Made by a program: the position numbers and the translations under genes. From Henricia sp. BOLD:AAB3569 (taxonomy: Eukaryota > Echinodermata > Asteroidea > Spinulosida > Echinasteridae), in the NCBI GenBank assembly GCA_037783545.1, contig JBBELK010000522.1, forward strand, positions 1-64,000: DNA of 64,000 nucleotides. Reading direction: 5' to 3'. Shown here piece after piece: positions 2,722-60,526 of the stretch (its first letter is position 1; every line of letters begins with the position of its first letter). The notes beneath the pieces are model-generated. The model saw only the letters and a list, made by a program, of their open reading frames with translations, did no database searches and was not told where the DNA came from.

Positions 2722-3118
2722 AGGCCTTTTCCCACTAGAACGTCAAACCCTGGGGCGAACTCGCCCCGGGGCCACCCCGGGGTGACTCACCCCCGCGTCA
2801 ATTCACACTTGTTGTTCTGAATTCTCGCCCCAGGGGCGAACTCACCCCGGAGATCGGCACCTCATCCCTCACTTGAACAAGTGAGAGCTTGCCCCCTGCC
2901 CCTTTTCCACTAACGTTTTCGCCCCGGGGAAAGTGTCTCTCCCCGGGGCAAAATTTTTCAACCCTGGTCTGAGCAGGGTTGCAATGAACTTGCCCCGGGA
3001 AATGAGCAATCTCGGAGGTGGCGCGGAGGTGAGACTTGCAAGTGGGAATCAGGGGCTTATTTTCACCCGCCGTCGCCCCCGGGCCACCCCCGAGATTTTG
3101 TCTAGTGGGAAAAGGCCT
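2722..3118. mobile_element. Foldback MITE, word family CCCCGGGGCGA
   Basis: The ends are a perfect 18-bp inverted repeat: AGGCCTTTTCCCACTAGA at 2722-2739 and its complement at 3101-3118. The 397-bp interior is GC-rich and made of many variants of CGCCCCGGGGCGA in both orientations. There is no transposase frame. Related elements lie at about 5500-6141 (sharing TTTTCCCA and AGAACGTCAAACCC) and 10852-11607 (sharing AGGCCTTTTC). No target-site duplication is evident. Confidence 0.8.
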
Positions 3119-3256
3119 GTGCCCGCAACAAAAGCTGTGCCCTCATTGGTGTAACTTTTGTAAAAAGTTACCGTAAGCCACAGTTATTAACATTCTATCA
3201 TGCTAAGTCCTCCGTGAAACCACAGTTTGGATTTATTTTCGGCCCATACAATGTCT

Positions 3257-3606
3257 TAAGGCAGCTAGTATACATCATTGGTAATCTCGAAAATCAGAAA
3301 TGTTCACAGATTTACGCCTAACTTACACAACTATAAACATGATGACCGTAGGAAAACTTCCCCTGAAATGGTTTTGTCTAGAAGTGCTTTAGTCTTTGAG
3401 AAATAAGTAAAACCATTAGTTTTCGTCTCATGAGACGAAAATTCAATTCGCCCCAAAACCATTTCGCCCAAGTGCCATTTTCGCCCCCACAACCTACTTC
3501 GCCCGACGTGCCATTTCGCCCCAAGTTACTTCGTCAAAACACTACATCGCCCAAATGCCACTTCAGCCCCAAAACCACTTCGTGCACATCATATACTATC
3601 TTTAAG
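3257..3606. mobile_element. Foldback MITE, word family TTTCGCCC (copy 1)
   Basis: The left end AAGGCAGCTAGTATACATCA and the right end (complement AAAGATAGTATATGATG) are inverted copies. At 3420-3441 is a perfect palindrome, TTTTCGTCTCA/TGAGACGAAAA. It is followed by repeated CATTTCGCCC, ACTTCGCCC and AAGTGCCA words. Longer copies sit at 45772-46285 and 61215-61692. Any open frame is only the iterated word. Confidence 0.8.
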
Positions 3607-3789
3607 CCACATGTAAAAAGAAACTGTTGGTAAAACGTACAGTGACATGTCATCGTCATCATTCAGGTCCAAACAGAAGTTACATGACCACAATATGTAT
3701 TCATGGCTTTACATAACAATGCCCATCCACTCAGGTCTTTCCAGTGACCGTAAAATTGACAATGTAATTGCCAACCTGAAGGTGCTTTT

Positions 3790-3935
3790 TCTTACCATTC
3801 ATTCAACACAAAAACCATGCATGGATTTTTCAGGTTTTCCTGAAGTATTACTGCATCAGTTTATCAACATTATTCTTTAGTTCTGTAACGCTGTTGTTCC
3901 TGTTTTTAAAAGGTTTGCTAATCATGTCTTTTATT
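3790..3935 (+). repeat. Interspersed repeat with uninterrupted SINE target
   Basis: It contains CATGGATTTTTCAGGTTTTC and then CAGTTTATCAACATTATTC. The same two blocks flank the SINE at 59031-59433, so this copy is the uninterrupted form. Related fragments with the CATGGTTTTTGTG motif occur near 8870 and 22390. Confidence 0.75.
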
Positions 3936-5499
3936 TTGTTAAATTAGCAACCATCTCTGTACGTTTATCCAAAAAAGAGTCAAATGCGGCAGGCTAAAGC
4001 CAGTCAGTTCACAACAAATATGTGAAATGCTGACATTATGCTGCACTCCCTGAAACTTGGCAAGTTTTGAGCTATCGTCACCAGGGAGATGACCCTGGTG
4101 TATTTGCAGGATGCATGTTGTTCCTCCCCACCCCCCTTAATAACTACCTACCTTCCTGTGCACACCTCCAGTCGTCTGCGACTCAGATCCATAGAATCCG
4201 GTCTCATCCCCTTTGGGCAACTTCCCCTATCGGACTCCTCAAGACAACTCCCACGGGGCTCACGACTAGCTCCATTGTGTGGGATTGGTTGTTGGAACTA
4301 GGATGGAGGCGTGTTCGGTCCTTGTGGAACAATCAATTGGCCGTTTAATGTTGCTTTAGTTGGGAAACGCCAGCTTTGAAGTGCTATTAAAGTTGGTTAA
4401 CTACATCCACCATTTTAAAATGGCAACAAATGTGAATAAAACCATGCCTCTTCATTTTTCTGATACTTTTTTGGCAGTTGAATATTTTGTCCTTTTCACA
4501 AAAATGACAGAATGTATTTACATGTAACATATTTTTGCAAAGTTCAAGTCAAAAAGTAGGATTTTGCCCTAATTCTGTGGCGCTAATTAACTTAATAATG
4601 GAAACCGTGCATGAGGCGACAACAACAACAACATGTGAACTAAATTGAATCTCTCTAATTGACCACTCACACAGACGCCATCTTTGTAGGAAAAATACAA
4701 CTGCGTACTAAACGCCATCAAGTAAATGTACGCACATCATGGCAAAATGTTCCAAACACGCGCGGCTGTGTTGCTCACGAATCTGTTCAACAATGACGGC
4801 GCAGCCGATGTTCATCCCCCAGAAATTTACAATGTACCCTCGAGATCCCGAGAGATCAATGGACACACATCGAGTTGCCAATTTTCGCCTTTGCAGGCAG
4901 CTTCCAGACAACCACCATACAGTATTCCTTATGTCTACACACAAATGTCTACACACTGACACAAAGGTGCATGATATAACTTCAGTAATGAACTATTTCA
5001 GTCCAGTAGACGTAACATTTCACAAGTTGCAGTTGGAGGCACAAAACATATCCAGCAAGCACAAAACGCATCCAGTATGTCAGTTGTAACAGATTCTCAT
5101 AAAAACCCTCCATCTAGTAGAGTAAATCCAAAACTATCCAGGGCGATCACAATGATGTGTAAAACACTTTTCTACAGAAACTGATCACATAACTCACAAC
5201 ACAAACTAATATGAATGAAATACTGCTGTATCAGACGACCTTTTACTTTCATTTGTTTCAATGTGTAAAATGGGAATAAAGAAACTGTAACCAGGCTAGT
5301 TACATGTATGTTAATTGTGACAGGAAAAGGGAAATTCCGGTTCCTCAACGGGTCAGCTGTCTAATTTTTAAACAGGATGTGGCTAAACTCTTAAATTCTT
5401 TTGAATTTAACTACCCTTAATGATCACCCTTTACAGGAAACCATTTCACAGGTTATATCAGTATACTTCAAACGTGTGTCCTCTTTATTTTGCAATTGC
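3936..5499. other. Unique-looking DNA, no supported gene
   Basis: No domain is recognisable in any frame. The 4690-4960 part is less AT-rich and has open frames of 84 to 116 codons on both strands, but no homology I know and no splice context that supports them. A promoter or an unrecognised exon cannot be excluded. Confidence 0.35.
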
Positions 5500-6141
5500 C
5501 ATGGGGCTAGTCTCAACCCCTGCTCGAAGCCCAACCATGGTTGAACATTTTGACCCGGGGTGAGACACATTCACCGAGGTGAGAATGGTAGTGAGAATGA
5601 TAGTGTGAAACTGGGCAGGGGCGAGTTCACCCAGGGCGAGTAATGGCGAAGGTCACTTGAAAGCAACATGAATGCCACGCATCGTTTTATATCCACGCTA
5701 AAGTACATACGCTGGCATTACATTTTCAACACGTGCACGTGCAATTCTGATGTCTTTGGTGTTTCCATTGCCCAGTAATATCACTTTTATCAGCTATTCT
5801 TCAGCTATGTCACAGAAAAAGAAGTAGGGAAATTTAGACTTTAACTGCATTTGGGGGACGACAAAATTCAAAAACAAAGGGACGGAAAAACAAGAAATTC
5901 TACTCGATAACCGCTTGCCTCTGGGACCAACTTGCTCAGGTGGGAAATGAGGGCAAAATGGCGATAACCGCTTGCCTCTGGGACCAACTTGCTCAGGTGG
6001 GAAATGAGGGCAAAATGTGTGTGGTTTGAGAAAGACAACTGTCAAAAGATATGGAGTTGAACTCGGGGGTGAAAAACCGCATGGCAGCCCTGGGGCGAGT
6101 TCGTCACGGGGTTTGACGTTCTGATGGGAAAAAGACTTATG
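5500..6141. mobile_element. Degenerate foldback, CCCCGGGGCGA family
   Basis: The right end, read on the minus strand, aligns with the 2722 element: TTTTCCCA, then AGAACGTCAAACCC, then CGAACTCGCCCC. GGGGCGAG and CCCGGGGTGAG words fill 5550-5650 and 6065-6115. The left terminal repeat is not identifiable, so the element is truncated or decayed. Confidence 0.55.
5905..6018. repeat. 57-bp tandem duplication
   Basis: CGATAACCGCTTGCCTCTGG at 5905 recurs at 5962, and the intervening sequence is identical or nearly so. It lies inside the degenerate foldback and is probably recent. Confidence 0.9.
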
Positions 6142-8068: not shown

Positions 8069-9135
8069 CTATTGTTTCTCTGAAACTACTGAAACCCTAG
8101 TGCTCTAATTTAAGTGAATTTGGAAGCTTATAAGGATGGTTATTTAGGCCAAACAAAATAAATAGTGTGTTTATGGTAACCCGACCTACCTGGAATTTTG
8201 GAGGCAAAATTGCCGACCTCAAACTTTTTATTGCCAATTTTCATGATTTTCAAGTTGATAATTTTAAATCCATAATTTCCAACGGACATACCATTGTACA
8301 CTTGTACATGAACATGGTAAATAGTGTTAATAGCGGGTTTCAAACATTGCAAAACAACACGCAAATGCATGAACTGAAATGTTCATGCATTTTTTTTTAG
8401 GCCGTTACCGTAAACGCACCATTTATTTTGTTTGGCCTTAGTGAAACTAAAACCTTTCTTTTCTAGTAGCTGTAAATCTTTTTTCAACCTTTAACAGTGA
8501 ACTGTATATATATACAGATAGTTCCATGCACTACCCATTCAAGGTATGAAGATCAGTACGATAGATCAGAAAAGACTAATATCATATCAAAAACTTTTCC
8601 TCACGAAGAAAAATTGCAGGTGTATACCCTCCTGAAGGATCTATCTACCGGTACATGTACTTTGTTTCTCGCCTTACTGCCTCATTAACGCCCACACAAA
8701 CTTCACGCATCACAGAGCTGCAGATTACTAATGTATCATTCGCAAGATGAAACTTTGTATGGATTCTTGAAATAACTGCAGTATATCTAAAGAATGTTGG
8801 TAAACTAGCCTGCAGAAATTTAAGGTACACAGATGCAGCAATGCTTTAGGAAACCATTAACATCCGTGCATGGTTTTTGTGTAAGGTATAAAATGGTAAC
8901 AAATGTATGTGCACACAATTTTTCAGTTGTTAATTTCTTGAAGAAAGTATCATCTTGGACATAAATAAATTAATGTGTTGTTTATTACCATTGCTATCAA
9001 TACTTTGATTAAGTTGTTTTCTTGTTAACTCTGAAAGTAAAATTTTGGGTCATTGCAAATGATACAATGTGCCATTAGGCCAACAAAAAAAGAGAAAGTA
9101 TTCTGTCTCTTGGTCAGACCCAAGTTCTGGAATTG
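8069..9135. other. AT-rich DNA with one short shared repeat
   Basis: No gene supported. The segment at 9033-9066, with AAGTAAAATTTTGGGTCATT, recurs almost identically near 43736-43770, so a repeat fragment is present. Confidence 0.4.
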
Positions 9136-10851: not shown

Positions 10852-11607
10852 AGGCCTTTTCACACTACAACCTCTCAACCCCGCATTCAACCCCGCATCA
10901 TTTTGTTTTAGCCAAACCGGGTTTACCTCGCCCCAGGGCGAGGATTCACACTTGTGCAACGCCAACCCGGGGCGAGTGATATAATCGAGCGTTGCTCGCA
11001 AGCGTAAGTGCTGTCCCCTGCTGGAAATAGTTCAAATTTTCCGAATTGGTCATTGCTTTTCTGCTCTGTTTTTCTGTTTTGCTGCCTGTGCCATTTTGTT
11101 TTACTACAGAAAAGTGCAAAAGTGAATGACGGACGATGTAAAAATAGCCTCTCAAAATGGAAGCTCTGATCTTAACACATACAACATGCACACCGCCGCT
11201 ACCTGGGGGTGGGGGTGGGGGTGGGGGTGGGGGTGGGGGTGGGGGTGGGGGGGGGGGGGGGGGGGGGGGGGTGGGGGGGGGGGTGGGGGTGGGCGCTAAA
11301 ACATGTACCTGAACACAATTATTCAGCTGGTAGTATTCATGCAAATTATTTAAAAAATGGTAAAATTGTCGTGTTTTGGCATGACATTTGTAGCTTACAA
11401 GCGGCAATAATCTTAACCAGGGGAGAACCCAACCCTGCTCGTTTCACACTACTGTTTTCAACCCGGGGCGAGCGTTTCAACCCGGGGCGAAAAATTTAAC
11501 CCCTGGTCCCGAGCAGGGTTGAGTTCAACCCATGTTAAAACCAATCTCGGGGTTGACGCGGAGTTTCAACCCCATGTCAACAAAATTGTTCAACTGTGAA
11601 AAGGCCT
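10852..11607. mobile_element. Foldback element, AACCCCGGGGCGA words
   Basis: The ends are AGGCCTTTTCACACT and the complement of AACTGTGAAAAGGCCT. TTG lies directly outside both ends, a possible 3-bp duplication. Words such as CAACCCGGGGCGA and CAACCCCGC fill both flanks, with opposite orientation bias. The centre holds a large G/T microsatellite. The end sequence matches the 2722 element for its first 10 bp. Confidence 0.75.
11205..11295. repeat. GGGGGT microsatellite and poly-G
   Basis: About eight GGGGGT units run into roughly 25 uninterrupted G and then further GGGGT-type repeats. Tracts like this can form G-quadruplexes and are hard to sequence and assemble. The proline- and glycine-only frames here are meaningless. 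Confidence 0.9.
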
Positions 11608-20797: not shown

Positions 20798-21334
20798 AGC
20801 CTAGCGTACATCGACATTGCAACTGGAAGCAACTCAACTGATCAGTTGCTGTCGATGTGTGTGTAGCGCGCACATCGACAAAAACTAGTTGCGCAACTAC
20901 ATGTACATGTAGCAGCAACTGGGAGCATCCAGCCATGTCTACATTTCCAGAGCACGCACATCGACACAGCAACTCAGTAAAGTGCAGAGTGCATTGCCCT
21001 TGCAACTGGAAGCAACTGTTGCTTGCAGTTGCTGTCGATGTGCGCGCACGTGATCAGATGCATGCGAGCAACTGGCAGCAACTAGTTGCAAGTACGCGTA
21101 CATCGACGCAACTGACCGCAACTGGGTACAACTAGTTGCCAGAAAGTAGAACATGAGCAACTCGCGGCAACTGGGATTTTTCCAGTTGCAAGTAGTTGCA
21201 AAGGCACATACCGGTACATCGACCAATTTAAGCAACTGATCAGTTGCTCCCAGTTGCCGCGAGTTTCTTCCAGTTGCCGGAAACACCAGTTGCCACTAGT
21301 TGCTTCCAGTTGCAGTGTCGATGTACGCTAGGCT
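20798..21334. mobile_element. Foldback MITE with TAA duplication, GCAACT words
   Basis: The 37-bp terminal repeats start AGCCTAGCGTACATCGACA and contain TGCAACTGGAAGCAACT, with one or two mismatches. TAA flanks both sides (20795-20797 and 21335-21337). By eye the interior has about 14 GCAACT and 13 AGTTGC, and about eight ACATCGAC or GTCGATGT, so terminal-repeat words tile most of its 537 bp. No transposase. PIF/Harbinger-like by target site. Confidence 0.93.
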
Positions 21335-23747: not shown

Positions 23748-23998
23748 GGCGCGAGGTCAAAATAGAAACAGTCTGTATACCGGGAAACGGTACATAAACG
23801 ATACACCATTGCAAGGTTTTGAGTGAGCAAGCAAACGGTTCAGCTGGTCTGGCCAAATGGTAGATAATTGGCAGTGTTTAACACACCCGTGTTCGCTGAA
23901 CAAACGGTTTTCTCCCCACAGACAAACGGTTCCAAGAGGGATTAACTCGAACCATTTACCAGTATATATACAGACCGTTTGTATTTTGACCTCGCGCC
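23748..23998. mobile_element. GGCGCGAGG MITE, copy 2, with TAA duplication
   Basis: Same ends as the element at 12868: GGCGCGAGGTCAAAATAGAA and CAGTCTGTATACCGG, mirrored at the right. TAA flanks it (23745-23747 and 23999-24001). It is shorter, 251 bp against 397 bp, and shares CGATACACC, CTGGTCTGGCC, AATTGGCAGTGTT and AACGGTT words with copy 1. Confidence 0.92.
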
Positions 23999-28567: not shown

Positions 28568-28944
28568 TAAAGCCTCGTTCACATATAATGCTGCATGGTT
28601 CTGCTGTCTGCGGTTTGTAGATGGGATTTATACAAATCGTACGGCTTTGCGGGCTGCGGAAGCAGTGTTCACAAATGTTACGAGGTCCACACAGCAATTG
28701 TAAAAGTCATGAAATCAAAATCCGTGAGGAGATCGCAAGGTGCCAGTTAACAAACTGCGAGGCACCTTCACGGCGACCGCAAGGCAAGCTGCCCGCACGG
28801 CTGTTGCGGCCGCCGCAAGGATGCCGTGAGGCCACCGCAAGGTCTCCATGTGGCGTACTTTGATACATGCAATGATACATGCGGCGGGGTTGCGGCCTAC
28901 GGCGCAGGCCAACACGCCGCAGGCCATTTGTTACCAAGGCTTTA
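28568..28944. mobile_element. Foldback MITE, CCGCAAGG words
   Basis: The ends TAAAGCCTCG and the complement of CCAAGGCTTTA are inverted. The interior is rich in ACCGCAAGG, GCCGCAAGG, TTGCGGCC and GCGGC words in both orientations, with GTTCACA near the left end. No transposase frame. A TAA/TTA pair sits at the ends but an exact duplication cannot be separated from the terminal repeat. Confidence 0.7.
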
Positions 28945-29089
28945 GGAATCTGGAAGTTTTTAAAACATTATGGTACCCTCCTACAAAATTCAAGCTGCAT
29001 ACACACTCAACCAGAAATTGAGCAGCCAATCCAGTGCAAAACTGGATGCTGATACATGTACCACACAAAATGAAAGGTACCGCAAATCG

Positions 29090-29425
29090 TTGCTGACACT
29101 ACGAAGTGACACCCAAGAGCACTTATGTTACAGTTCCTGAAAACCACACAGTGGGGGACACAAGTTGTCACGAACTGAGATCCGAGTGTGTGCGAGCACT
29201 CAGTGCACTGGGATCAAAATGCATGAATTTTTGTTTCCACGAACTGACACCCAAGTTATTCTAAAAAAATAAACTTTAAAAATGCTCGACACGAATTATA
29301 TCCTCCATATACTTGGAGAATATAGTAAAAAAATTGACCGAAACACTCCCCAATTTGTTAATTTATGATAGGTGTCAGTTCGCGAAAACAAAAATGTTGG
29401 GTGTCAGTTCAATTTATGTCCCGAC
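29090..29425. mobile_element. Foldback element, CGAACTGACACCCAA words
   Basis: AAGTGACACCCAAG (29103), ACGAACTGACACCCAAG (29239), GGTGTCAGTTCGCG (29370) and GGGTGTCAGTTCAA (29398) place the same word in opposite orientations on the two halves. Boundaries are not exact. Confidence 0.6.
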
Positions 29426-30097: not shown

Positions 30098-33000
30098 TGG
30101 CCTGCGCACTTCCGGGTTTGATAACGAGGCTCTTCGTGTTAAGCAACCGAAGTGAACTAATGTACGCACGTGAATGCACAATCACTCCTAATAATGCCAT
30201 GCAAAAAAGCACACATAAGGGCTATTTCACAATAAGTGGTCATTTGAGTAAATTACAGTATAACCCATCCTGGATAACTTTATCAGTGCAAATACATGTT
30301 ATGAGTGATTTTATATGATGGGTAATATGAAGGACAAGCTACATAACTATTTTGATGTAATTCTACGAGTTATTCGATGTGAATTTCTCCATTTACATGC
30401 ACTTTTAACACCATTTTGGAGTCTCATTTCAGTTTTACATTAGTTTTAAGTGGAATCATTTGTTTATGGTGCATTATCGTGGTGAATTTGGTGATCAATC
30501 ATGGATATATAGTGTTCAACAATATTGTGAAACTTGGGTTGGTGTAATTCGGTAAAAAAATGCTAATTTTATGAACATTTCAAAATAAAGTGGATTTCCC
30601 GTTAAATAAAATATGTAATGTCCTCTCCAGGACAAGGTATTCATGACAGTGGAATAGTTTGGAAATATGTACTCACAAGTATGTTTGTATCATCTACAGG
30701 ACACAATTGATGGAGTAAATATGACAATTTGATCGTGGGAGAGATTTGAGTATATATTATCAAGATCATATTCAGGGGTGTGGAAAATCCGTTAAAAATT
30801 TGTCCTCTCCAGGACAGCAGTTAATTGTAATTAACATGTCAACCATGATTGAAATATTTTATGTTATGTTTGTAAAATTAACAGTACCATTCCTTCTAAC
30901 AGGACATTGCATGGCATTACCATTTCAACATTTAGTCTGACCATTATATTGTGGTATTCTGTGTTTAACAAAATGTCCTCTCCAGGACAATACATAGATT
31001 TGTGCACAGCCTACATGTTTCATTTAAAGAATGAGTAAATATGACTTCCCCTGTGAGAAAATCATATGATCCCATGTTCACCATGTTGCTGCTCATATAT
31101 ACAGATAATAAAATTACACATTTTTGTGTGTAGTACATAACATAATACAAATTTGCATGATAAAGCCCTCGAATTTGAAATATTCAGGTGCAAATATCGG
31201 ACAGTTGGGACTTTTGTCTGGAATATTGTTCCTGTAATAATACAATACACTTATTGGCATACAATTACTGCCCAATAATACAATAAAGGAAATGTATGGT
31301 ACTTATAATACTACAGTAAGCTACCATGTACATGTTGTTCTGGAGGGGACACTTTATTTAACACTATTTGGGGCATGGTGTTGAGGTAGCAGCATGATAG
31401 AAAAATCATCGAATATAAACATCTGTCAGTTGATTGTAGCAATCTCCACTGTATGAGGATATGAATATCTGTCTCTTGGCTACATAGGCAGATGGGTTGA
31501 TCAATTGTCCAGACCTGGGTCAAAAACTTATGATGCTACCAGAAAGTAGTCAGTGAGGAAATTATTGCACTGGTTGGATAGATTTGAGAAGAGGATTAGT
31601 TGTTGATATCAGTATTGAAAAACAGACGAGTCATGTTTAAATTTTATATTTTAGATAACTATCAAGTTGAGAAATGAAAACTGAGAAATGAGAACAAGAA
31701 ATTACATCATTATTTACAGTGTATGTGAAGAATGTATTACAATATTTCAGAATGTTCAATGAAGGTATTTGTTTAGGTGCACTGCTTGTACAATGGACGT
31801 GAAAGTGATTTCTATTGACAATTGCAATGATTGTCAAAAAATGTCCTTTCCAGAACACATTGATGTGTGCTTGCTTTTGATTACACATTATCCCGTGAAA
31901 TCACTAACAAATTGATATAATGTTAGAATTATTGCATTCTTCAAAGGCGCAATGAAGATAAAGTGAGTTTTAATTTATTTTTTTACTATAAGTCAAAGTG
32001 TTCAGAATCATGCATTCAGACTAAAGAAGAATCAGTGCAGTCATATCTTATCAACAACACAAATGAATATAAGATATGTGGACAAATGTTTTCCACGCTC
32101 ATATTTACTTTTAAAGAACATTCGTTAAGTGTTTTAAAAAATGTCCTCTCCAAGCCATACATGTTATTCCTCAGTCACTATGTAGAGAGTATACATCAAG
32201 TATGAAGCATTCAAATAGATCATTCAACCATATAAATTGTAATTTTATGACATGGGAGCAATTGCTTTATTTGGGAGGAGTAATTTACTTTAGAAGTTCA
32301 TGCAAGGTTTAGTACAAAATTGGTATATTGTTGAACTACATTTCTATTTGCATTTTTAACATAACAGACTGATATTGAATCAGTTGTTTTATTCATGCTG
32401 TATGTTTTTATGTGTTCATACAAGTGAGATACCTTGAATTGCTTAGGTGTTTGTTAATCAGACTTGACATTTTTTTGAGGGGTAATACAATGATTTATTA
32501 TTGTTTTTAAAAAATGTCCTCTCCAGAACACATTGGTGTATGCTCGCTTTTAAGTCCACAATTACACATTTTCATGTGAAATCAATTACAAACTGATATA
32601 ATTATTATTGGTACCCAACAATATAATGAGTTCATGTTTGGACAATGCCATACTCCAAGAGCATGGTGAAGATGAGGTGAGATTTCCATGTTTTCTTTAA
32701 ACTATAATTATAAGTTATTTTTGAACTATAAATGGATAAGCCTGTTACATTCGTTGTTAATGATGGAATGGAACACAACATATTTTAGACTTTAGAAGAG
32801 TGCACTCATATTTCATCAACACAAATGAATATAAGGTATGTGGAAAGACATTTTCCACTCTAGTGGTACTTTATAAGTACATCTGTTTATTGTTAAACAA
32901 AATGTCCTCTCCAGACAACCAATTACGCATCATTATTTCATTGGAAAAAATTAACATGTTAATCATAATGCCACGCTCCGAGATTTTAGGAATTATTAGT

Positions 33001-33222
33001 ATACATCCTGAAGTTTTCAGATCAACAGAGTTTTTGTGAATTGGACAAGTTTGAAATTTGACCCCCAGTGAGACTGAAAGTGTACACTTATTGTGAAATA
33101 GCCCATAAACAAACACTCATTCAGTCAGTCACTGTACAATATTGTACTTGTTGCGCATGCGTACTGCCGGCTTGACACGAAGTGGCCCGGTTTCAATGCG
33201 GAAGTGCGCAGAATGGGCTAAT
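30098..33222. mobile_element. 3.1-kb TIR element with repeated TGTCCT-AGGACA boxes
   Basis: The ends form a long imperfect inverted repeat (about 135 bp per side). CTGCGCACTTCCG, then CTTCGTGTYAAGC, then GGGCTATTTCACAATAAGTG occur at the left end (30102-30240) and inverted at the right (33085-33210). The interior is AT-rich, with no frame above 85 codons. It carries eight copies of the palindromic box TGTCCTCTCCAGGACA or close variants. Blocks around 31850 recur near 32524, and blocks around 32040 recur near 32815, so roughly 0.7-kb sub-repeats are present. A large non-autonomous DNA element is the best reading. Confidence 0.8.
30619..32918. repeat. Eight interspersed TGTCCTCTCCAGGACA boxes
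   Basis: Positions: 30619, 30801 and 30974 (exact TGTCCTCTCCAGGACA), 31336 (inverted, TGTTCTGGAGGGGACA), 31842 (TGTCCTTTCCAGAACA), 32142 (decayed second half), 32515 (TGTCCTCTCCAGAACA) and 32903 (one base short). Most are preceded by A-rich sequence (AAAATG). The dyad TGTCCT/AGGACA around CTCC resembles a binding site for a dimeric protein. Confidence 0.85.
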
Positions 33223-35454: not shown

Positions 35455-36142
35455 TAAAGGCGTGTTCCCATTGGACTTCTTTTTCCGCGCCCTCGCTGGA
35501 ACATTCCGCGACTCCCTGTAAACATTCCTTCCTGTAAATCTCCCGTGCGTTCCCACTAACCATATTTTACACGACGCGAGCGGAAAATTTAGCTACTCGG
35601 CTGGCCATATGTGGTCAATTGAGGGCGTGGTTTACATAATCTTTGACCTAACAGGATGTTTGACATGCCATGTGATACACATATTGGCGCGAAATTATTA
35701 ATTGTGTGCATGCTGCACGAAACCCAATCAAATTTCGAACAACTTCGATTAAACTTACATTTGCGAAGAAAAAGAGCATGAAAAATCACGTGAGTACGTA
35801 CATACAGGGCCCGTACATAATGACCAGAATTTTTTTGCACAATGTGTGGTTGCATTGCACGATGCAGGAAGTGACGTCATTTATTTGGCATTTTACACAG
35901 CGGCAGCGGTAGTTCTACAGGGCGGCGCTGTTCCCATTGGACTTTTCGAGGGCCCTGTAAAACTCCCGCGGTTGAGCGGAAAGTTTCCGCGGCCTCTCTC
36001 GCCCTGTACGTTTTACATCGTGGTCGCGGTAACTTTACAGGGATGCTAATTCTCCGTGCGTCCCCACTGGACTAAATTTTGTTACTCTCCCGCACAACCA
36101 CGGGAGTTTAACCAAAAATAGTCCAATGGGAACACCACTTTA
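35455..36142. mobile_element. Foldback element, GTTCCCATTGGACT ends
   Basis: The left end TAAAGGCGTGTTCCCATTGG and the right end (complement TAAAGTGGTGTTCCCATTGG) share about 30 bp. GTTCCCATTGGACTTTT recurs inside at 35929, and CCTGTAAA, CGCGG and GTTCCCAC words recur in both orientations. This suggests either internal duplication or insertion of a sister element. No transposase frame. Confidence 0.8.
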
Positions 36143-37201: not shown

Positions 37202-37478
37202 AAGGCCAATTTACACGACCATTCTTTTGTTCAAAAATTTCATCCAACATTTGTATGATGATGTTCTATCGTGTAAACGGGAATTTGAACATCTGCGAAC
37301 AAGCTTGAACATGTTGGACGATGTTTGAGCATGCACAATAATTTGAACAAATGTATGATAGTGTTTAACCTCTAAACCAATCAGATTACAGATTTAGGTC
37401 ACATGTTATTTCAGGTTGCAAGAAAATCCACAAAATCTGTAAAACATTCATGAAAATCTCTGGTGTAAACTGGGACTT
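37202..37478. mobile_element. Foldback MITE, GAACAWTTGT words
   Basis: The left end AAGGCCAATTTACACGACC and the right end (complement AAGTCCCAGTTTACACCA) are inverted. GTGTAAACGGGAATTTG at 37271 gives a further inner inverted end. TTTGAACA, GAACATGTTGGA and AACAAATG words recur. Confidence 0.7.
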
Positions 37479-38819
37479 CTAGTGCCCTTGAACAAATGCA
37501 AACATTGTTGGATGGCATTTTAGAACAAAATTACAGTATAAGTCTGTAATTTAAAATATTCAAAGGTCGACTAGGGGAAACAAAGTTAGTGCCTGGAAAT
37601 GTAGAAGGTTCAAGTCCCAAAGAGCACAATACATATGAAGTTTTTAAAAAAGGTCTTCATATTAAAGGACAAATTTAGCAATAGATTTTTCTTAATAAGG
37701 CCTCAATGTCCAGTGCCAGTTTTAACCAACTCAGATTGGTTAAAATTCTTTTCTTGATTTCAATATTAGCCATAACTCCTACAACATGAAGCATGTGCTT
37801 TGCAGGGGCTGTGGTGCAGGGGCTGTGGTACAGGGGAGGGGGTGGGGCGACAACTGCTCCATCCCCAATAATTTTGACGAAGTGCCCTTTTTTCCCACAA
37901 AATGCCCTTTTCAAAGAATGAAACAACTTATGGATTTTTATAGGGGACTTTAAAAACATATGACATCTATTTTTAGTTTAATGACTCCAGGCTTAAAGGG
38001 GGAATCAGAGTTAATTTCTCTGCTTTTCACGAGAATAAAAAGGTATTATATTGATCCTCAGTTACTAGAGAGACAATTTCCTAATAAAAAATAGAAACTT
38101 CCATCCCTGTTAAAAATTTGGGACAATTGTTCATCGTAAGTTTACTTTCCATTTTATGCTAACAACAAACGAAAACATGTGAATCTTTGCACGGTGAAAA
38201 GCGCCCTCTGTAGTTAAGCTGTCTTTGTCTGTGGCTCCGGCCTGGTGTATCCCAGCAATATTAATGGATTAAGAACCATCTTGGGCCAATGCTAATTTGA
38301 ACATTCACCCCTCTTAAGCATATTTATTAACACCAAGAGAATTCACGAAGGTACACTACACATAAAGAAGACATCGAATTCAAAATATTAAGCCTATTAA
38401 ACCGTAAAACACCGAGCGTTTCGAAAACGGCCTATGTGGAACAGATTTTGCGCGTACGTCGAAACATCCAAACGTATCACGTGCATAGCTACACCCTGGT
38501 TACTGCTATTTGCATATAAATTGCCTGCCGACCCGGTACTTTTCATTGGGAAAATACTAAAAAATCATAAAGTGGATGGATCTAAAAAGGTAGGAGGATT
38601 GTATTTTTATTCATAGACTATCGACTAGTTCAAATAAATCTGGCGAGGCCTAGTCTTCGGACAGTACAAACTCTAAATTCCCTTTTAAATTGGGACTTCT
38701 TTTTAAGAGCATGAGACTTGCTGTTAATGATTTGAGACTTGAACTGAGACTCAAAATTGGAGACTTGTTGCCTCATTTAAAAATTCTGAGCAGAGCACTA
38801 AATGCACGATTACACTTTA
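37479..38819. other. AT-rich DNA, no supported gene
   Basis: Contains a G-rich patch at 37805-37850 and a degenerate GAGACTTG stretch at 38700-38770 resembling that at 34720-34800. No coding frame is recognised. Confidence 0.4.
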
Positions 38820-39683: not shown

Positions 39684-40129
39684 GGGATGGGATGTTTAAC
39701 CGGTTAACTGAAAAAAAGGAATGTTTCCTAATAAGTCGCGTGTCCTAAGTCAAGAAAAACTTGTTGAGTTTCATGGCTGAGTGGGCCAGCGAATTAAACT
39801 CAACACCTTGAAAAACAATGAAAAACTGTGCAATAAGGATGAGACATTTAACTGGTTAACCGTTCAACCGAAAACAAAATGAAAAACCGGTTTTGCCGAT
39901 CGTTTAAAGGTTTTCAGAGGGTTATTTGTAATGACTTCATGAAACAAATTTTCATGAAATAAATTTATATGAGGTCGTCGATGAAGGTTTAACAATTATT
40001 TCGGTGGCCTAGGGGTATCGTGTACATTGCCCATAAACACTCTTTAGTGTCGGCCGAACGGTTATCCGGTTAACAGATACTTGAAAGAATTGAAAACCGG
40101 TTTCTAGATTAACCTTAAAATCCCATCCT
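39684..40129. mobile_element. Foldback element, AACCGGTTAACC words
   Basis: The ends GGGATGGGATGTTTAACCGG and the complement of TTAACCTTAAAATCCCATCC are inverted. A second, near-identical end (AAGGATGAGACATTTAACTG) lies at 39836. GGTTAACCG, CCGGTTAAC and AAAACCGG words recur across the element. Ends of this form occur in hAT-type MITEs, which would leave an 8-bp duplication; none is visible. Confidence 0.75.
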
Positions 40130-40675
40130 TACTGTGCGAAGCCACTGTCCTTTTAAGCCTTTTAAGGACTTGTCGCTGTTTTTTTTTAGCTTAACAGCTT
40201 TATTTATAACCTCCAAATCAATCTACATGTATTTCTGAAAATGATGACACTTTATATTGCAAAGCACTTCAAAGAAGTTTTGTGTCAAGCATAGCACAAG
40301 AACAAAATCATCTCTAGTAATGCATCTATTTTGGTTTGTTGATCACAAAAATGTCTTCGACCCCTTGCCGCAAAAAATGTCTTTGACCCTAAAAATGTGA
40401 TTTATTTTGGAAGGTTTATCCCTCAATTTCTTAAGCATGGTAAAAATTGCATCAATTTAAGGCACAAAACCATGCAGGGAACCACCTGATTTGGCTTGCT
40501 AATAAGTGCTTTAGCACAAAATAGATTTTATAAAATGATGATAATGCCCTTTTTAGCACAGTGCTATAAAGCAGAAAACGTGTGCCAACAGGTTTTTGTG
40601 AAATTGGGGGCCTGTTATGTAATTACAATGAAGGGGTGCATTTTGAATACATGTCCCGGGAAACTACCCCACTTC
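40130..40675. other. No recognisable feature
   Basis: AT-rich, short frames only. Confidence 0.35.
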
Positions 40676-44479: not shown

Positions 44480-45254
44480 TAATGGCCCTTTCACACTATG
44501 ACGTCCGACCTGTGTCGAAATCTACACGGTTCCAACCCTGGTCGACTTTTTTTAAATTTCAACACGGGTCAAGCCGGCTACATTTTTACACTACTAAACG
44601 CAACACCGGCATTTATTCTACACGTGTAATGTTTCGACAGCGCGAGCGTTCCCACTACTCTTTTTCCGCACCGGGTTAAGACAAAAAATTCAACCGTTAC
44701 CCCGGGGGTTCGTTAATGGCCGAACCCTGGGGTTAGCATTGTAGTGGGAAACCAAGCAGGGTTAAGTGTTCACAGACAATTTCGGGATTAGCACGCGCTG
44801 CGCTGGCACACATAATTATACGTACGTACGTGCACATTTTTGCTCTCCCAATTTATTAAGGCATGGCTTCTCAAGCACCATACATGTATGTATATCTAAA
44901 TTCTTAACAAAAGGAAGAGAACAAAGGTGTGGAAATAAGCAGAAATACAGCTCCTCATCCAGGCCTGGTCGATAGACAAGTTCAGTAACTCAATGGGACT
45001 ACATGTACTCGAAAATCGGAATAAGATGTTTGCAGATTTCTGTTCCTCCAGTCCCTGTATACAGATATGCCCGCGTCTAGTGGGAAACCACACTGCGCTA
45101 ACCCGGGTCAAGCTCGCCCCGGGTTTTGCAAAACTCCGGGTTAACGAAACAAATTGGAACATAACTCGGGGTTAACGAACCCCGAGGTAAGACCAGCTTA
45201 CCCGGGGCGGCAAATCTCCGTGTTAAGCAGTTTGTAGTTGGGAAAGGGGTATTA
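44480..45254. mobile_element. Foldback element, AACCCGGGGTTCG words
   Basis: The ends TAATGGCCCTTTCACACTAT and the complement of TAGTTGGGAAAGGGGTATTA match over about 18 bp with mismatches. The interior is full of CCGGGTTAA, GGGGTTCGTTAA, ACCCCGGGT and GTTCCCACTA words in both orientations, biased by side. No transposase frame. Confidence 0.8.
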
Positions 45255-45771: not shown

Positions 45772-46285
45772 TTAAAGGCAGTACACATCATTGGTAATCT
45801 CGAAAATCAGAAATGTTCACAGATTTACGCCTAACTTACACAATATAAACATGATGACCGTAGAAAACTTCCCCTGAAATGGTTTTGTCTGAAGTGCTAT
45901 AGTCTTTGAGAAATGAGTAAAACAATTAGTTTTCGTCTCATGAGACGAAAATTCAATTTGCCGCAAAACCATTTCGCCCAAGTGCCATTTCGCCCCAAAC
46001 CACTTCGCCCGAGTGCCATTTCGCCCCAAATTACTTCGTCCAAACACTACATCGCCCAAATGGCACCTTTCCCTCAAAACCACTTCGTGCACAGGCCGTG
46101 GTTCAGAGCGAAATGATTCAGGGCGAAGTGGTTTTGGGGCGAAATAACTATAAACCCTTTTTTGACTGTTTTCTCAAAAGTACGGTTTTAATCAGGTTGG
46201 TTTTAATCATGCATATCTTCAATCACACAGAGGGATAAAACTAATTGTAACAGTTTACCAATCATGTATACTATCTTTAATAATT
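45772..46285. mobile_element. Foldback MITE, TTTCGCCC words (copy 2, full length)
   Basis: The left end TTTAAAGGCAGTACACATCA mirrors the right end (complement AAAGATAGTATACATGAT) and continues through TTGGTAA. The central TTTCGTCTCATGAGACGAAA palindrome lies at 45931-45950. Words TTTCGCCC, CAAGTGCCA and the inverse GGGGCGAAAT are repeated on either side. Confidence 0.85.
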
Positions 46286-48290: not shown

Positions 48291-48500
48291 GAAAGGCCGT
48301 TTCCCACGACACTTTAATCCCGAGATAACCCGGGTAACAGACAAATTTAACTCCGAGATTACCCGGGTTAAGGGCTCGTTTCCCACGGCAAATCTCGGGG
48401 TTACGAATTACCTGGGTTAACTGGCCAAAAATGCCACTTAACCCGGATAATTTCTAGCCCAGGATTTTGTATTGCATTTTGTTGAAATGGACCGAGAATA
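48291..48500. mobile_element. Partial foldback, AACCCGGGT words
   Basis: AAAGGCCGTTTCCCACGACA at 48291 and GGGCTCGTTTCCCACGGCAA at 48371 are direct copies of an end-like sequence. Between and after them ACCCGGGTTAA, CCCGAGAT and TCTCGGGGTTA words recur. The opposite end is not found. Confidence 0.6.
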
Positions 48501-48861: not shown

Positions 48862-49116
48862 AACTACAGTCACATTGGAGGTATGGTAGAGCACGGTACA
48901 GCATAGTTGAAGATCGGCGTCTACCGTGCTCTATTGCAGAGGTAACCATATCGGTACCGTGGGCTACCGCGCTGTGCCAGGAAACTGATTTCTAATTTTT
49001 AAAATGTTTAAAAATTAAGAATTTACCGCACGGACACCGCACTGTACCGGCTGCATCGCCTACCGTGCTCTACTGTGCGCCACCGTGTACGTACCGTGTT
49101 CTATGTGACTGTAGCT
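48862..49116. mobile_element. Foldback MITE with TAA duplication, TACCGTGCTCTA words
   Basis: The ends AACTACAGTCACAT and AGCTACAGTCACAT (complement) are inverted, and TAA flanks both (48859-48861, 49117-49119). Inside, GGTAGAGCACGGTA, CTACCGTGCTCTA and GTACCGTG appear at least eight times in both orientations. 255 bp, non-coding. Confidence 0.88.
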
Positions 49117-51170: not shown

Positions 51171-51367
51171 AAATGGCTTCATCGAGCGAAGGAAATGTTC
51201 ACATTTTAAATTTGCTTCGTCAAATTAAGTGTCCTGTTTGTCATATGTATTAAGATATTTTGCTTCATTGAACGAATTAGAGATTGTAATTTTCGTTGAA
51301 TGAAGAGGAATGCATTCAAGGAAATCTTAGTCAAATCATCGTTGGGTCTTTGTCGAATGAAGCCATT
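51171..51367. mobile_element. Foldback MITE, TTCATTGAACGAA words
   Basis: The ends AAATGGCTTCATCGAGCGAA and the complement of TTCGAATGAAGCCATTTTT-type sequence match with mismatches. CTTCATTGAACGAA and TTCGTTGAATGAAG recur inside in opposite orientations. Confidence 0.7.
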
Positions 51368-51442
51368 TTTCCTCATGAATGCGAACTCGCATCACTGAGA
51401 TCGCTCATTGCATTAGTGATGACTGGTTCACACTTTCCATAA

Positions 51443-55706: not shown

Positions 55707-57779
55707 AGCTTTTTTTATTCTTCCGTCAAAACCCCATAGACAAAGCGCATGGTCTTTCGGCCTGGCAAAATGGTCACTTGCAAAGCTCGGATCATCATCA
55801 AACTTGGTCACAACAATCACCTCATAATGAGGTACTGCACAAATGTGTTTACATTTTGATGACGTCATCAGGTGTCAGATTACAAGCGTTTGAAATATAT
55901 GGCCTTCAAATTGAAACTTCTGTAAAAATTCAACCGTTTGAGATACAAACTTTATTCTTTCGGCAATGGTCATGACTATCCAAGGTCTAAATTTCATACA
56001 CAGACATTGACCTTGAATCTTGCTTCCTATTGGTCGAAAACGAGGCTGCCCTGTCATTTAAAACTGGTAGCAGATACAGAGATTGGGTCAAAAGTGTTAG
56101 TCTCAAGACCTCTTAGGCATTCCAAAAATACCAAAAGTTAAGTCGTGACACGAAAGAGCGCCCTCTAGCGGCAAGTTGAAAAATGGCCAAAACCTATTTT
56201 GAAGAGATGTCTGTGGCGAAGTTTTTGCAAATTGGCCCAAAATTGGTGCATATGTTCACTGAGGGTCAATGAACACGCCCATACCTTCAAAAGTTTGATG
56301 ACGTCACCAGGTGTCAAATTACACTCAGTTGAACATGCGTTCTTCTAACGGTTATATCTAGAGAACGAAAAGGCCGATGGAGGACAAATTTTCTGTTTTA
56401 GGTTTGTTGTGACTTGGTCTAATGCATATTAGCAAAAAAAATTGGTGGCGTAACGATGACGTCATCAAATATGCCCGTTTGTGCAGCATACATTAGCCAA
56501 GGTCGTTCACTTCCTCTAATGGGCGTATGACCTTGAAACCTAGCAGGGACGTAGACTTGGTCATTAACATATAACATACCAAGTTACATTAGTGTGACGT
56601 CATTTGTTGATTTGTTATGAATTTTTGAATCTGGCAACCTATACCACAGCATACACACAGTGCAGTATATACGAGTGTACATAAGCATGTACAATATGCA
56701 TACATCTGCACTACCCCATTTCCCATAGACAAAGCACATAGTCTATCTCGCTGCTAGAAGGGTCGCTTGCAAAGCTTGGATCATCATCAAACTTGGTCAC
56801 AATAAGGAACCCATAGTAAAGTAATATACCAAAGAGGTTACATCTTGATGATGTCACCAAGTGTCAGATTACATGTGTCTGAAATTTAATGCCTTAAAAA
56901 TTCAAAAATCTCTAAAAATTCAACCGTTTGAGATACAAACATTTTTGTTTCGGCAATGGTCATGACTATCCAATGTCTAAATTTCATGCAGAGACAATGA
57001 CCTTGAATCTTGCTTCCTATTGGTCGAAAACGAGGCTGCGTCGTCATTTAAAACTGGTAGCAGATACCGAGATTGGGTCAACGTTGTTAGTCTCTGGACC
57101 CCTTGGGCATTACAAAAATACCAAAAGTTAAGTCGTGACACGAAATGGCGCCCTCTAGCGGCAAGTTGAAAAATGGCCAAAACGCGTTTTGAACAGATGT
57201 CTGTGGCGAAGTTTTTTGAAATTGGCCCAAAATTGGTGAATATGTTCGCTGAGGGTCAGTGAACATGCCCATACCTTCAAAAGTTTGATGACGTCACCAG
57301 GTGTCAAATTACACTCGGTTGAACATGCATTCTTTTAACAGCTATATCTAGAGAACGAAAAGGCCGATGAAGGTCAAATTTTGTGTTTTAGGTTTGTTGT
57401 GACTTGGTCTAATGCATATTAGCACAAAAATTTGGTGGCGTAACGATAACGTAATCAAATAAGAGTTCCTCAAGTATACATTAACCTAGATCGTTTACTT
57501 CCTCCATTGGTCGTATGACCTTCAAACCTAGCAGGTGCCTGGACCTGGTCATTAACATGTAACATATCAAGTTACATTAGTATGACATGCATGATTTGTT
57601 GATTTATTATGAATTTTTGAATCTTTTCACTTTGCATGTACATGTACATGTAGGGTATGCATTTACATTGTACAAAGTGTACGTAGTATTATACAGCATG
57701 CAGTTTTACATGCATACAAACATACAAAAAAAGAAAAGCGGAAAGCCATATGCTCTGTTATCAACAGACATACCTCTAG
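55707..57779 (+). repeat. Helentron-like unit 2 with two ~990-bp sub-repeats
   Basis: Direct copy of 53611-55706, a few percent diverged by eye, with the same two sub-repeats. It ends GACATACCTCTAG before an (ATT)n run that continues the SINE tail. Confidence 0.9.
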
Positions 57780-57796
57780 TTATTATTATTATTATT

Positions 57797-58317: not shown

Positions 58318-58540
58318 AAGAATGCCTTTGTTGGAGTTAATTTGAATAGCTTGTGACTTGAATTAAGACCCAGGGATGGTGGACTTGTGAAGGCTTGTGA
58401 GGACTTGTGAAGGCTTGTGAGGGCTTGTGAGGACTTGTGAAGGCTTGTGAGGACTTGTGAAGGCTTGTGAGGACTTGTGAAGGCTTGTGAGGACTTGTGA
58501 AGGCTTGTGAGGACTTGTGATGGACTCGACTGCAACCCTG
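58318..58540 (+). repeat. CTTGTGA repeat with expanded minisatellite
   Basis: The flanks match 12390-12640 inverted: GAATGCCTTTGTTGGAGTTA and AGCTTGTGACTTGAATTAAG. From 58381 to 58520 there are 14 decamers alternating mostly GGACTTGTGA and AGGCTTGTGA. The 156-codon minus-strand frame across it is the translated minisatellite, not a gene. Confidence 0.92.
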
Positions 58541-58984: not shown

Positions 58985-59030
58985 ATTCAACAAAAAAACA
59001 TCCATGGATTTTTCAGGTTTTCCGAAGTAT

Positions 59031-59034
59031 TTGT

Positions 59035-59093
<59 letters not shown>

Positions 59094-59433
59094 TTCACCA
59101 CATCCAACAGCGGAAGGACCGCAATTACAGGAATGGGATCAATTAACATAGATATTCGAATAACTATCAACTTCTAAGTTGAATTAGAAACTGCCAGAGA
59201 CACCGGGGAATCCCTCTCTTTGCTCTTCACGAAAGAATGCTCTGGGATCTTTAAAGTGCATTACCGAAACCTAACACAATGGACCAACGGCTTTACATCC
59301 CTTCCGAAGTGTGATTAAGTGCCTTGCTCAAGAGCACAAGTGCCACAACCCGTCACGGCCCGGCATCGAACCCACATTCTAGTACTGGCTCGTACAGGAA
59401 CTTGAGTTCAACGCTCTAGACCGTTCAGCCATA
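59031..59433 (-). mobile_element. tRNA-derived SINE (family B), inverted copy
   Basis: Reverse complement of the family at 33256: (TTTA)n of about 60 bp, then CACCACATCCAACAGCGGAA, CTTAGATCCC-type core and the tRNA-like head near 59360-59433. It splits a repeat whose uninterrupted form is at 3790-3935: GTTTTCCGAAGTATT lies on one side and CAGTTTATCAACATTATTC at 59468 on the other. Confidence 0.9.
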
Positions 59434-59680
59434 ACACTGCATCTATGTGGCTGAAATTTCTACAAGGCAGTTTATCAACATTATTCTTTAGTTATGTAGG
59501 CCTAATCCTGTTTTTAAAAGTTTCGCAATCATGTAATCTGTCTTTCAACAGACTTGCTGTATAGGAGGAGTGGCAACCCTGGCCCCCCACCCACCCACAG
59601 CAAACCTGATGGAGGAGTCTGGTCTCGTGCTAATATAGGAAGATGGGCACTCTGGCTTGTAATTAGTTATACATGTAACT
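59434..59680. other. Remainder of the SINE-split repeat and spacer
   Basis: CAGTTTATCAACATTATTCT and CCTGTTTTTAAAAG match 3858-3912. No gene. Confidence 0.6.
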
Positions 59681-59683
59681 TAA

Positions 59684-60526
59684 GGCCCTCTCACACACGG
59701 AAAAATATCAGGTGCGAGCTTCAAGAGTTGGCGAATTAGGGAAACTCTTGGTAAAACCCTTGGCGTCACAATGTCTATGAGTATACTGCGAGCTTACTAT
59801 ACGAGTTAGGTAAGAGTCAGTTACGAATTTGATACGAGCCTGGTACGAGTTGTCCCGAGTGTATATGAGTTTTACGAGTTAACTACGAGTTATAACGAAT
59901 TAGGCAGAGTTTCTCAAGTAAGTCACGAGTTCACTACGAGCTTTCCGAGCTTACTGCGAGTCAGTTACGAGTGTGGCATGAGTTTGGTACGAGTTTCCCA
60001 ACTTCGGCATTTTGCGTGGGATTTGGCACCAAACCATCTCAAATTTCACCGACTCTTGCAACTCGTGCTTGAAGTCTTATAACTTAGACCACTCGTACAA
60101 CTCGTATCAAACTCTATTCAAACTCGATACAAATGTGAACAAATGTCCATGATGAGTTTGGGAAATCTGGATGCAGTGAAAAGCCACTTGGCCCCACCGG
60201 GATTTGAACCGCGGACCTTCTGCTTAACGTGCAGACGCCCTACCAATTCAAACTCGTGTGATACAGTGCTGTATGAGTTTGCTACGAGTTGTACACGTAG
60301 TGGCCTACGAGTTAAACACGAGTTGCATGAGTTTGTTGAGAGTTGCACGAGTTTGGTGCGAGTTGCTCACGAGTTGGCAACTCATGGTCGAAATTTTAAA
60401 CATGTTTAAAATTTTCGCCACGAGTTGCACACTGCTAGGAGTTGTCCCACGAGTTTTCCAAATTCACCGACTCGTGAAGCTCCTGTTACTCGTGCCTGAG
60501 ATTTGTTTGTGTGTGTGGGAGAGGCT
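59684..60526. mobile_element. Foldback element, ACGAGTT words, with a SINE inside
   Basis: The ends GGCCCTCTCACACACGG and the complement of TGTGTGTGGGAGAGGC are inverted, with TTAA/TAA-type sequence outside. By eye about 26 GAGTT and six AACTC occur in 843 bp, often as (T)ACGAGTT. At 60120-60252 an inverted family-C SINE interrupts it. No transposase. Confidence 0.85.
60120..60252 (-). mobile_element. tRNA-derived SINE (family C) copy 2
   Basis: Minus strand: GGTAGGGCGTCTGCACG, TTAAGCAGAAGGTCCGCGG, TTCAAATCCCGG, then the body TGCATCCAGATTTCCCAAAC shared with 10351-10490. The T-arm is better conserved than in copy 1. The 5' D-arm merges into GAGTT-word sequence. Confidence 0.85.

What the first reader, a model, noticed from the sequence alone, without database searches (positions are those of the whole stretch)
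2722..60526. A repertoire of foldback elements, each built from a different short word
The same architecture recurs with unrelated words: CCCCGGGGCGA (2722, 5500, 10852), TTTCGCCC (3257, 45772, 61215), CACGGCA (11692), GCAACT (20798), CCGCAAGG (28568), GACACCCAA (29090), GTTCCCATTGGACT (35455), AACCGGTTAAC (39684), AACCCGGGT (44480, 48291), TACCGTGCTC (48862), TTCATTGAACGAA (51171), ACGAGTT (59684). Many ends share a GGCC..TTYCACAC theme (AGGCCTTTTCACACT, GGCCCTTTCACACTA, GGCCCTCTCACACAC, AGCCTCGTTCACAT). Inference: one mechanism with diversified recognition words. This is the best candidate in the window for something not well described.
Basis: partly seen in the sequence, partly recalled or inferred. 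Interest (0 to 1): 0.8.

Follow-up and report, generated by a model that had tools for sequence, protein, structure and literature searches.

The report
Harbinger transposons with family-specific word arrays
Several of the odd hairpin-like repeats in this animal DNA look like short passengers of one known class of jumping genes (PIF/Harbinger): their tips are alike, but each family fills its arms with its own repeated short word, most likely the landing site of that family's own mobility proteins.

Summary
The grouping is too wide: the TTTCGCCC family and regions 29090, 39684 and 51171 lack the theme. The host genome is searchable (740.7 Mb) and explains the core. Of 11 transposase regions examined, three families have word-filled arms around a PIF/Harbinger-type transposase gene, two of the three with a MADF partner gene: L039 (ATCCG), L040 (GGCGGAT), L043 (CGGTA); their transposases are 46-53% identical. 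Window element N shares a palindrome with L040, element L a tip with L039; the words differ. Three-bp duplications flank 19 of 28 elements against 137 of 680 mismatched pairs; five further N-type pairs showed none. In several families words lie about 10.5 bp apart. Best reading: a Harbinger radiation in which each lineage amplified its own protein-binding word. Binding is inferred. No coding partner was found for window families A, C, E, F or K. New variant of a known kind.

The parts
2722..3118 (.). Element A: tips AGGCCTTTTCCCACTA, word CGCCCCGGGG; no duplication
5503..6141 (.). Piece B: one end resembling A's (inverted pair 2718-2798/6061-6141, 78%)
10852..11607 (.). Element C: tips AGGCCTTTTCACA, words TCAACCCCG and CCCGGGGCGA, duplication TTG; 65 exact copies of its 20-mer end in the genome
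11692..12247 (.). Element E: tips GGCCCGCTTCAAACG, units CTTCAAACGTC and GCCGTG, duplication TTA; 1217 exact copies of its 18-mer end
20798..21334 (.). Element F: tips AGCCTAGCGTACATCGAC, words GCAACT (27) and ACATCGAC (8), duplication TAA; 1263 exact copies of its 19-mer end
28571..28941 (.). Element G: tips AGCC, word CCGCAAGG; no exact duplication; own-end copies not above shuffles (9/60)
35457..36140 (.). Element I: tips AAGGCGTGTTCCCATTGGAC, internal copies of GTTCCCAYTGGAC; no 3-bp duplication
44484..45250 (.). Element K: left tip GGCCCTTTCACACTA, word TAACCCGGG; degenerate right tip; no 3-bp duplication
48295..48480 (+). Fragment of a K-like element: tip GGCCGTTTCCCACGA, word TAACCCGGG; right end not found
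48862..49116 (.). Element L: tips AACTACAGTCACA/AGCTACAGTCACA, word TACCGTGCTC, duplication TAA; tip shared with the right end of coding element L039
59683..60526 (.). Element N: tips AGGCCCTCTCACACAC/AGCCTCTCCCACAC, word ACGAGTT, duplication TTA in this copy
60390..60418 (+). Palindrome GAAATTTTAAACATGTTTAAAATTTTCGC in N, shared in form with the L040 family
30219..33104 (.). Element P: tips GGGCTATTTCACA, word AAATGTCCTCTCCAGGACA (8), flank ATAA; no Pfam match in two ORFs tried
37203..37520 (.). Element Q: left tip AGGCCAATTTACACGA, words TTTACACGA and TTTGAACA; right end uncertain
23748..23998 (.). GG-tipped element GGCGCGAGGTCAAAATA with AAACGG words, duplication TAA; relative at 12868-13264 (TTA)
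8147..8437 (.). GG-tipped element GGCCAAACAAAATAAA without word array, duplication TTA
45772..46285 (.). TTTCGCCC family copy (also about 3250-3620 and 61215-61692): real word array, other ends; not filed with the core
51172..51368 (.). Element M: tips AATGGCTTCAT, weak word, no duplication; not filed with the core
29080..29420 (.). Word region GACACCCAA without bounding terminal repeats seen; not filed with the core
39684..40134 (.). Word region AACCGGTTAAC without bounding terminal repeats seen; not filed with the core

Best explanation
The core word-bearing elements are non-coding passengers of PIF/Harbinger DNA transposons. Shown: the same genome holds coding elements of this layout, namely a short tip, then arms packed with one family-specific word in both orientations, around a DDE_Tnp_4 transposase gene and, in two of three families, a MADF (Myb/SANT-like) gene. 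Shown: related elements with the same tip or the same internal palindrome carry different words. Inferred: the word is the binding site of the family's own DNA-binding protein (the MADF partner or the transposase N-terminus); many sites, often on one face of the helix, load protein along both arms and bring the ends together, and the tip beside the 3-bp target is where the DDE enzyme cuts. Inferred: the DNA-binding protein drifts in specificity and the word arrays follow, giving families with one mechanism and separate words.
For: L039: DDE_Tnp_4 ORF of 417 aa, arms full of ATCCG (z 56.1 and 45.5, ORF 3.7), about 10-bp steps (0/500 in both arms), duplication TAA. L040: DDE_Tnp_4 plus MADF, GGCGGAT arms (z 7.8, 7.6), duplications TTA and TTC in two copies. 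L043: DDE_Tnp_4 plus MADF, CGGTA arms (z 4.1, 7.6), duplication TGA. Transposases 46.5-52.5% identical, MADF ORFs of L040 and L043 24.6%. Own-end copies in the interior: 8 of 15 window elements beat all 60 shuffles. N and L040 share a 29-bp palindrome: 46 genome hits, 29 within about 3.1 kb of a listed transposase (counted by hand). L shares CTACAGTCACA with L039's right end. Duplications: 19 of 28 (16 of the 19 TTA or TAA) against 137 of 680 mismatched pairs; F 5 of 5 distinct copies, E 3 of 5. Spacing near 10-10.5 bp in N, L, F, E and, at 0-14 of 300, in five sets from L043, L076 and L075.
Against: Protein binding to any word is untested. No coding partner found for A, C, E, F or K. Only 3 families (4 or 5 of 11 regions) showed word arms; L041, L042, L045, L046, L047 and L048 did not give a clear one. 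L040 words show no phasing (486/500, 441/500), nor do 13 of 18 window word sets. L039 has no MADF gene. The transposase N-termini are only a little more diverged than the DDE parts (43.8-48.7% against 53.3-55.8%). Nine of 28 elements lack an exact duplication, and five N-type pairs not put into that count (L055, L056, L058, L059, L061) show no 3-bp duplication. Some tips were placed with the flanks in view. C's end scores as well in A's interior as in its own.
Confidence: 0.68

Rival explanations
1. The words are degenerate tandem repeats grown by slippage or unequal exchange inside ordinary Harbinger passengers and have no role in movement.
For: Repeat arrays of variable number occur in Medicago Harbinger elements and change by gap repair (passages of PMC2213677); TRF finds short 10-22-bp arrays in N; 13 of 18 window word sets show no phasing.
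Against: Words stand in both orientations, start next to the tip at both ends in E and F, in L039 are confined to the two arms and not the ORF, and steps mix about 10, 20 and 30 bp with spacers poorly conserved around the word in N. The spacer comparison is biased because copies were chosen by their word.
Confidence: 0.17
2. The listed families belong to unrelated transposon superfamilies that reached similar fold-back shapes independently.
For: The TTTCGCCC family, 29090, 39684 and 51171 lack the shared tip and duplication; K's flanks (AAT...ATT) resemble the ISL2EU target A|AT|T and P has ATAA; L041 carries an unlike 105-bp inverted repeat.
Against: For the core set, tips, 3-bp duplications and coding relatives agree.
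Confidence: 0.1
3. The words are binding sites of host regulators carried by the elements, not of the transposition proteins.
For: Only the general possibility; the window surrounds a PDZ-domain exon of a host gene. No host-motif search was made.
Against: Each family has its own word, and words sit in the arms of coding elements too.
Confidence: 0.05

Closest known systems
PIF/Harbinger elements and their MITEs (PHIS superfamily; PMC4482050, parts 1 and 2 of 4 read; PMC9710019, passages)
   Same: DDE_Tnp_4 transposase, MADF/Myb-SANT partner, 3-bp TWA duplication, tips starting A or G, non-coding passengers; Harbinger3_DR Myb-like protein binds a 9-bp subterminal motif
   Different: Here the arms hold up to dozens of copies of one word, often helically spaced, and the word changes between families sharing a tip; duplications TTG, TTC, TGA also occur
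Medicago MtPH-A6-4 Harbinger subfamily (PMC2213677, passages)
   Different: One subfamily with a 60-bp tandem unit; here several families with different short words and shared tips
Galileo / Foldback-like elements (PMC3688188, abstract and part of Results)
   Same: Long internally repetitive arms with several binding sites for the transposase's THAP domain
   Different: P superfamily, Drosophila; here DDE_Tnp_4 genes and 3-bp duplications
Maize Ac/Ds subterminal AAACGG repeats (PMC3260210, passages)
   Same: Repeated subterminal hexamer bound cooperatively by the transposase
   Different: hAT superfamily, one word; words lie in the outer 200 bp
Mutator-like elements with multiple terminal repeats (PMC3310237, abstract)
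   Same: Extra copies of the element's own end inside the element
   Different: Long tandem ends in plants; here many short copies without the outer tip

Membership tests
PIF/Harbinger | 3-bp TWA target duplication | tested here: met
   Met for E (3 of 5 copies), F (5 of 5), L, N (window copy), L039, L040; 16 of 19 duplications found are TTA or TAA. Not met: A, G, I, K, M, P, two E copies; TTG, TTC, TGA in C, L044, L043; five other N-type pairs without one
PIF/Harbinger | DDE_Tnp_4 transposase | tested here: met
   Coding relatives L039, L040, L043 (E 6e-31, 6.6e-32, 5.9e-32). The window elements are non-coding as far as tried: 10 ORFs scanned, of which 2 lie in element P, none with a transposase match
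PIF/Harbinger | Second ORF with Myb/SANT (MADF) domain | tested here: met
   L040 E 5.8e-8, L043 E 1.8e-7. L039 shows only one ORF of 150 aa or more
PIF/Harbinger | Coding partner with the window family's own word | tested here: inconclusive
   C706, C23, C862 and C61 candidates failed; end listings for E and F are capped at 100 places and the transposase list at about 150 of 606 candidates
ISL2EU | AT duplication within A|AT|T, tips GG | tested here: inconclusive
   Only K fits (AAT before, ATT after), with a degenerate right tip; one copy in the genome by its 20-mer
Foldback/Galileo type (P or Mutator superfamilies) | Target duplication of 7-9 bp (recalled) | tested here: not met
   No exact repeats of 6-10 bp at the flanks of 22 elements, offsets -4 to +4
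Cognate word-binding system | Element's own protein binds the word | not testable with these tools
   Needs a binding experiment

The most novel reading that the evidence does not exclude
One genome holds a radiation of Harbinger lineages with separate, co-evolving recognition codes: a fast-changing MADF or N-terminal DNA-binding domain and a helically phased array of its word, re-amplified each time specificity shifts, while tip and catalytic core stay alike. Each lineage mobilises only its own passengers, and the set is a natural key from MADF sequence to DNA word.
Probability: 0.35. Interest if true: 0.75.

Novelty: new variant of a known kind. Interest (0 to 1): 0.58.

Why it matters
If the words are cognate sites, this genome offers several natural pairs of protein and site within one transposon type, so the recognition code of MADF/Myb-SANT domains and the role of repeated, phased sites in pairing transposon ends become testable. 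It also explains why passengers of one class can look unrelated: the conserved part is a short tip, while much of the sequence is the family's word. For annotation, a tip plus a 3-bp duplication plus an amplified word is a usable search rule.

Tried and rejected
Scans of viral contigs (two patterns) and genome contigs (one pattern) found nothing. An apparent coding partner of N at C706 proved to be an L040-type Harbinger inserted inside an N-type element. A 4.5-kb pair of F ends at C23 held F-type pieces around ORFs, one of which looked like an ATG4 peptidase (recalled likeness, not scanned), none like a transposase. A 2.2-kb pair of L ends at C862 (L075) is a long word array with no long ORF and a second word inside. 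L ends about 9.44 kb from transposases at C61 and C104 are not one element at C61: the gene belongs to an L043-type element and the L end stands apart; C104 was not read. Word-rich stretches beside transposases in L013/L014, L046, L047 and L048 could not be tied to element ends and are not used. In L043 the densest word window (5930) lies in its second ORF, not an arm. The looser end motif was barely enriched. An AT duplication (ISL2EU) for L039 was considered and replaced by TAA once the tips were aligned. A first duplication count with misplaced anchors for L and N gave 18 of 28 with offsets -1 to +1 and 7 of 15 in the window; corrected anchors gave 19 of 28 and 8 of 15 at offset 0, 20 of 28 and 9 of 15 with offsets. 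Left out of both counts: repeat views of the same copies (L003, L006, L008, L051), L001 (one end), and the N-type pairs in L055, L056, L058, L059 and L061, none with a 3-bp duplication. A note (entry 2) says 11 of 17 theme hits are ends; on recount it is 9 ends and 2 internal. Literature: seven answered searches listed no title or abstract on diversified words among Harbinger families; most hits were seen only as listings, and the library lacks most subscription papers.
Full report
WHAT WAS CHECKED. The window is animal DNA (PDZ-domain exon on the minus strand at 24671-24769, Pfam E 2.9e-5; the resemblance to neurabin is recalled). In 16 of 17 regions the pairs of repeated 6-mers beat all 200 dinucleotide-preserving shuffles; in the other (51171) 199. 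The 5503 region beat the shuffles on pairs, but its top 6-mer did not (111/200). Among 92 control windows the median z was 0.7; the highest were a minisatellite (58001), a long palindrome (62501) and an unlisted word element (37001). So many elements each with its own word is a real observation, with a weak case at 51171.

THE SHARED END. GGCCYTTTCACACTA with up to three mismatches occurs 17 times against 3.11 expected and 0 of 100 shuffles as many. By my reading 9 of the 17 are element ends (A twice, C twice, P twice, K, the 48295 fragment, N) and 2 are internal copies in A and C. A looser motif is barely enriched, so the theme holds for these families and only approximately for the rest.

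ANATOMY. For 15 elements I took bases 5-50 of each end and searched the element's own interior. Own-end copies exceeded all 60 shuffles in 8 of 15 (A, C, E, F, I, K, L, N); not in G (9/60 shuffles as good), M (2), P (3), Q (1), 23748 (1), 12868 (21) and 8147 (32). The own interior scored far above every other interior for A, E and F, about twofold for I and L, and 1.3- to 1.4-fold for K and N; C's end scored as high in A's interior (299 per kb) as in its own (291), in keeping with A, C and K being relatives. In F the interior repeats ACATCGAC followed by GCAACT without the outer AGCCTAG; in E the unit is CTTCAAACGTC...GCCGTG. In A the TTYMCACTW units run + in the left half and - in the right; C and K show this only partly. 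These elements are thus largely built from tip-less copies of their own ends.

SPACING. Word positions keep steps near 10-10.5 bp in N (0 of 500 random placements as good), L (6), F (10; best period 9.5) and E (13); N with exact words 26; the other 13 of 18 word sets gave 70 or more of 500. The steps mix 9-11, 20-22 and 29-31.

THE HOST GENOME. The window's assembly is searchable: 740.7 Mb, 2104 contigs. Exact end 17- to 20-mers: E 1217, F 1263, K 1, N 91, L 48, C 65. DDE_Tnp_4 (PF13359) gave 151 matches from 606 candidates of which 150 were scored. I read 11 transposase regions of 6.5-9 kb beside the short loci. Three families could be given both ends.

L039 is a 2.1-kb element with one 417-aa DDE_Tnp_4 ORF. 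Its arms are full of ATCCG (z 56.1 and 45.5; ORF 3.7) at about 10-bp steps (0/500 in both arms), and its flanks give TAA. L040 is a 4.2-kb element with a DDE_Tnp_4 ORF and a MADF ORF; word GGCGGAT, arms z 7.8 and 7.6, no helical spacing (486/500 and 441/500). Duplications: TTA (L040), TTC (L044), and, read by eye, TAA for the copy inside an N-type element in L059, with a mismatch at one tip's first base. L043 is a 5.0-kb element with DDE_Tnp_4 and MADF, tips AGGCCCTGTCACAAG, duplication TGA, CGGTA 9 and 7 times in the arms (z 4.1 and 7.6; phasing 14/300 and 11/300). Of the other eight regions L044 and L049 are L040 relatives (99.5% and 96.7% aa); L041 has an unlike 105-bp inverted repeat; L042, L045, L046, L047 and L048 gave no clear word-arm element, though L045 has theme-like ends (AAGGCCTATTTACACTGG) without words.

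LINKS. (1) Window element L and L039 share CTACAGTCACA (at L039's right end; its left end reads GCACAGTCACA) at about the same distance from a TAA duplication; words differ. A related AAACATGTT palindrome is in L043 and a looser one in L; the simple pattern also hits five window places without palindromic context and misses L039. (3) A neighbour of an L043-type copy (L076, one end resolved) shares AGGCCCTGTCACA with L043 but has words AACTTA and ACGCTG (z 16.9). So same tip or same palindrome with a different word is seen three times.

DUPLICATIONS. With tips aligned, 19 of 28 elements have an exact 3-bp duplication against 137 of 680 mismatched left-right pairs; window only, 8 of 15. Sixteen of 19 are TTA or TAA. 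Some anchors were set with the flanks in view, so the tail values in that call are optimistic; five N-type pairs elsewhere, not in the count, show none, which would make it 19 of 33. F is the clean case: 5 of 5 distinct copies.

MECHANISM. Harbinger elements need a DDE transposase and a Myb-like partner; in zebrafish Harbinger3_DR the partner binds a 9-bp subterminal motif, and MADF proteins evolve fast (PMC9710019, passages). Here the MADF ORFs of L040 and L043 are 24.6% identical against 46.5% for the transposases and 53.3% for their DDE domains; this is a single pair. I infer that the word is that protein's site, multiplied and often phased so that protein loads along the arms and pairs the ends, while the tip serves the cut. 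Galileo and Ac are precedents for many sites in the arms; a study of rice mPing found no shared internal motif there (PMC9921582, passages). L039 lacks a MADF gene, so there the transposase or a partner from elsewhere must read the word.

LIMITS. Binding is untested, partners of A, C, E, F and K are unknown, and several listed families do not belong. The kind is known; I saw no paper describing a repertoire of amplified, phased, family-specific words on shared Harbinger tips in seven answered searches, the nearest being the Medicago MtPH-A6-4 arrays.

Noticed in passing
58384-58520: Minisatellite of a 20-bp unit CTTGTGAGGACTTGTGAAGG, about 7 copies; the strongest control window (z 28.9), not a terminal-repeat element.
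   Followed up: partly
62384-62805: 422-bp near-palindrome with ends TTCCACAGTAAAG; a partial relative of its end lies at 34882.
   Followed up: no
53480-57780: By eye, two long related units (about 2.1 kb) each starting near a run of T and containing CGCCCTCTAGCGGC.
   Followed up: no
10349-10421 and 19232-19310: Two Rfam tRNA matches (42.3 and 40.3 bits) that ARAGORN did not report.
   Followed up: no
50127-50800: Minus-strand ORFs that look like a decayed non-LTR retrotransposon (recalled likeness); no Pfam match.
   Followed up: partly
L075 133-2317: Long L-type element: ACCGTG 37 times (z 76), phased at 10.5 bp (0/300 for the left part), and a second word with a GTTTTGAACATGTTCAAAG palindrome inside; duplication TTA.
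   Followed up: partly
L059 529-4978: An L040-type Harbinger sits inside an N-type element, a natural record of its movement.
   Followed up: yes
G000 C61 and C104: An L043-type transposase and an L-type end lie about 9.44 kb apart in both places, suggesting that a larger segment was copied (coordinates).
   Followed up: partly
L013 3150-3330, L014 210-330: A short array of CAACTCGACCGT beside a transposase gene, perhaps in an intron next to a THAP exon (recalled likeness).
   Followed up: no
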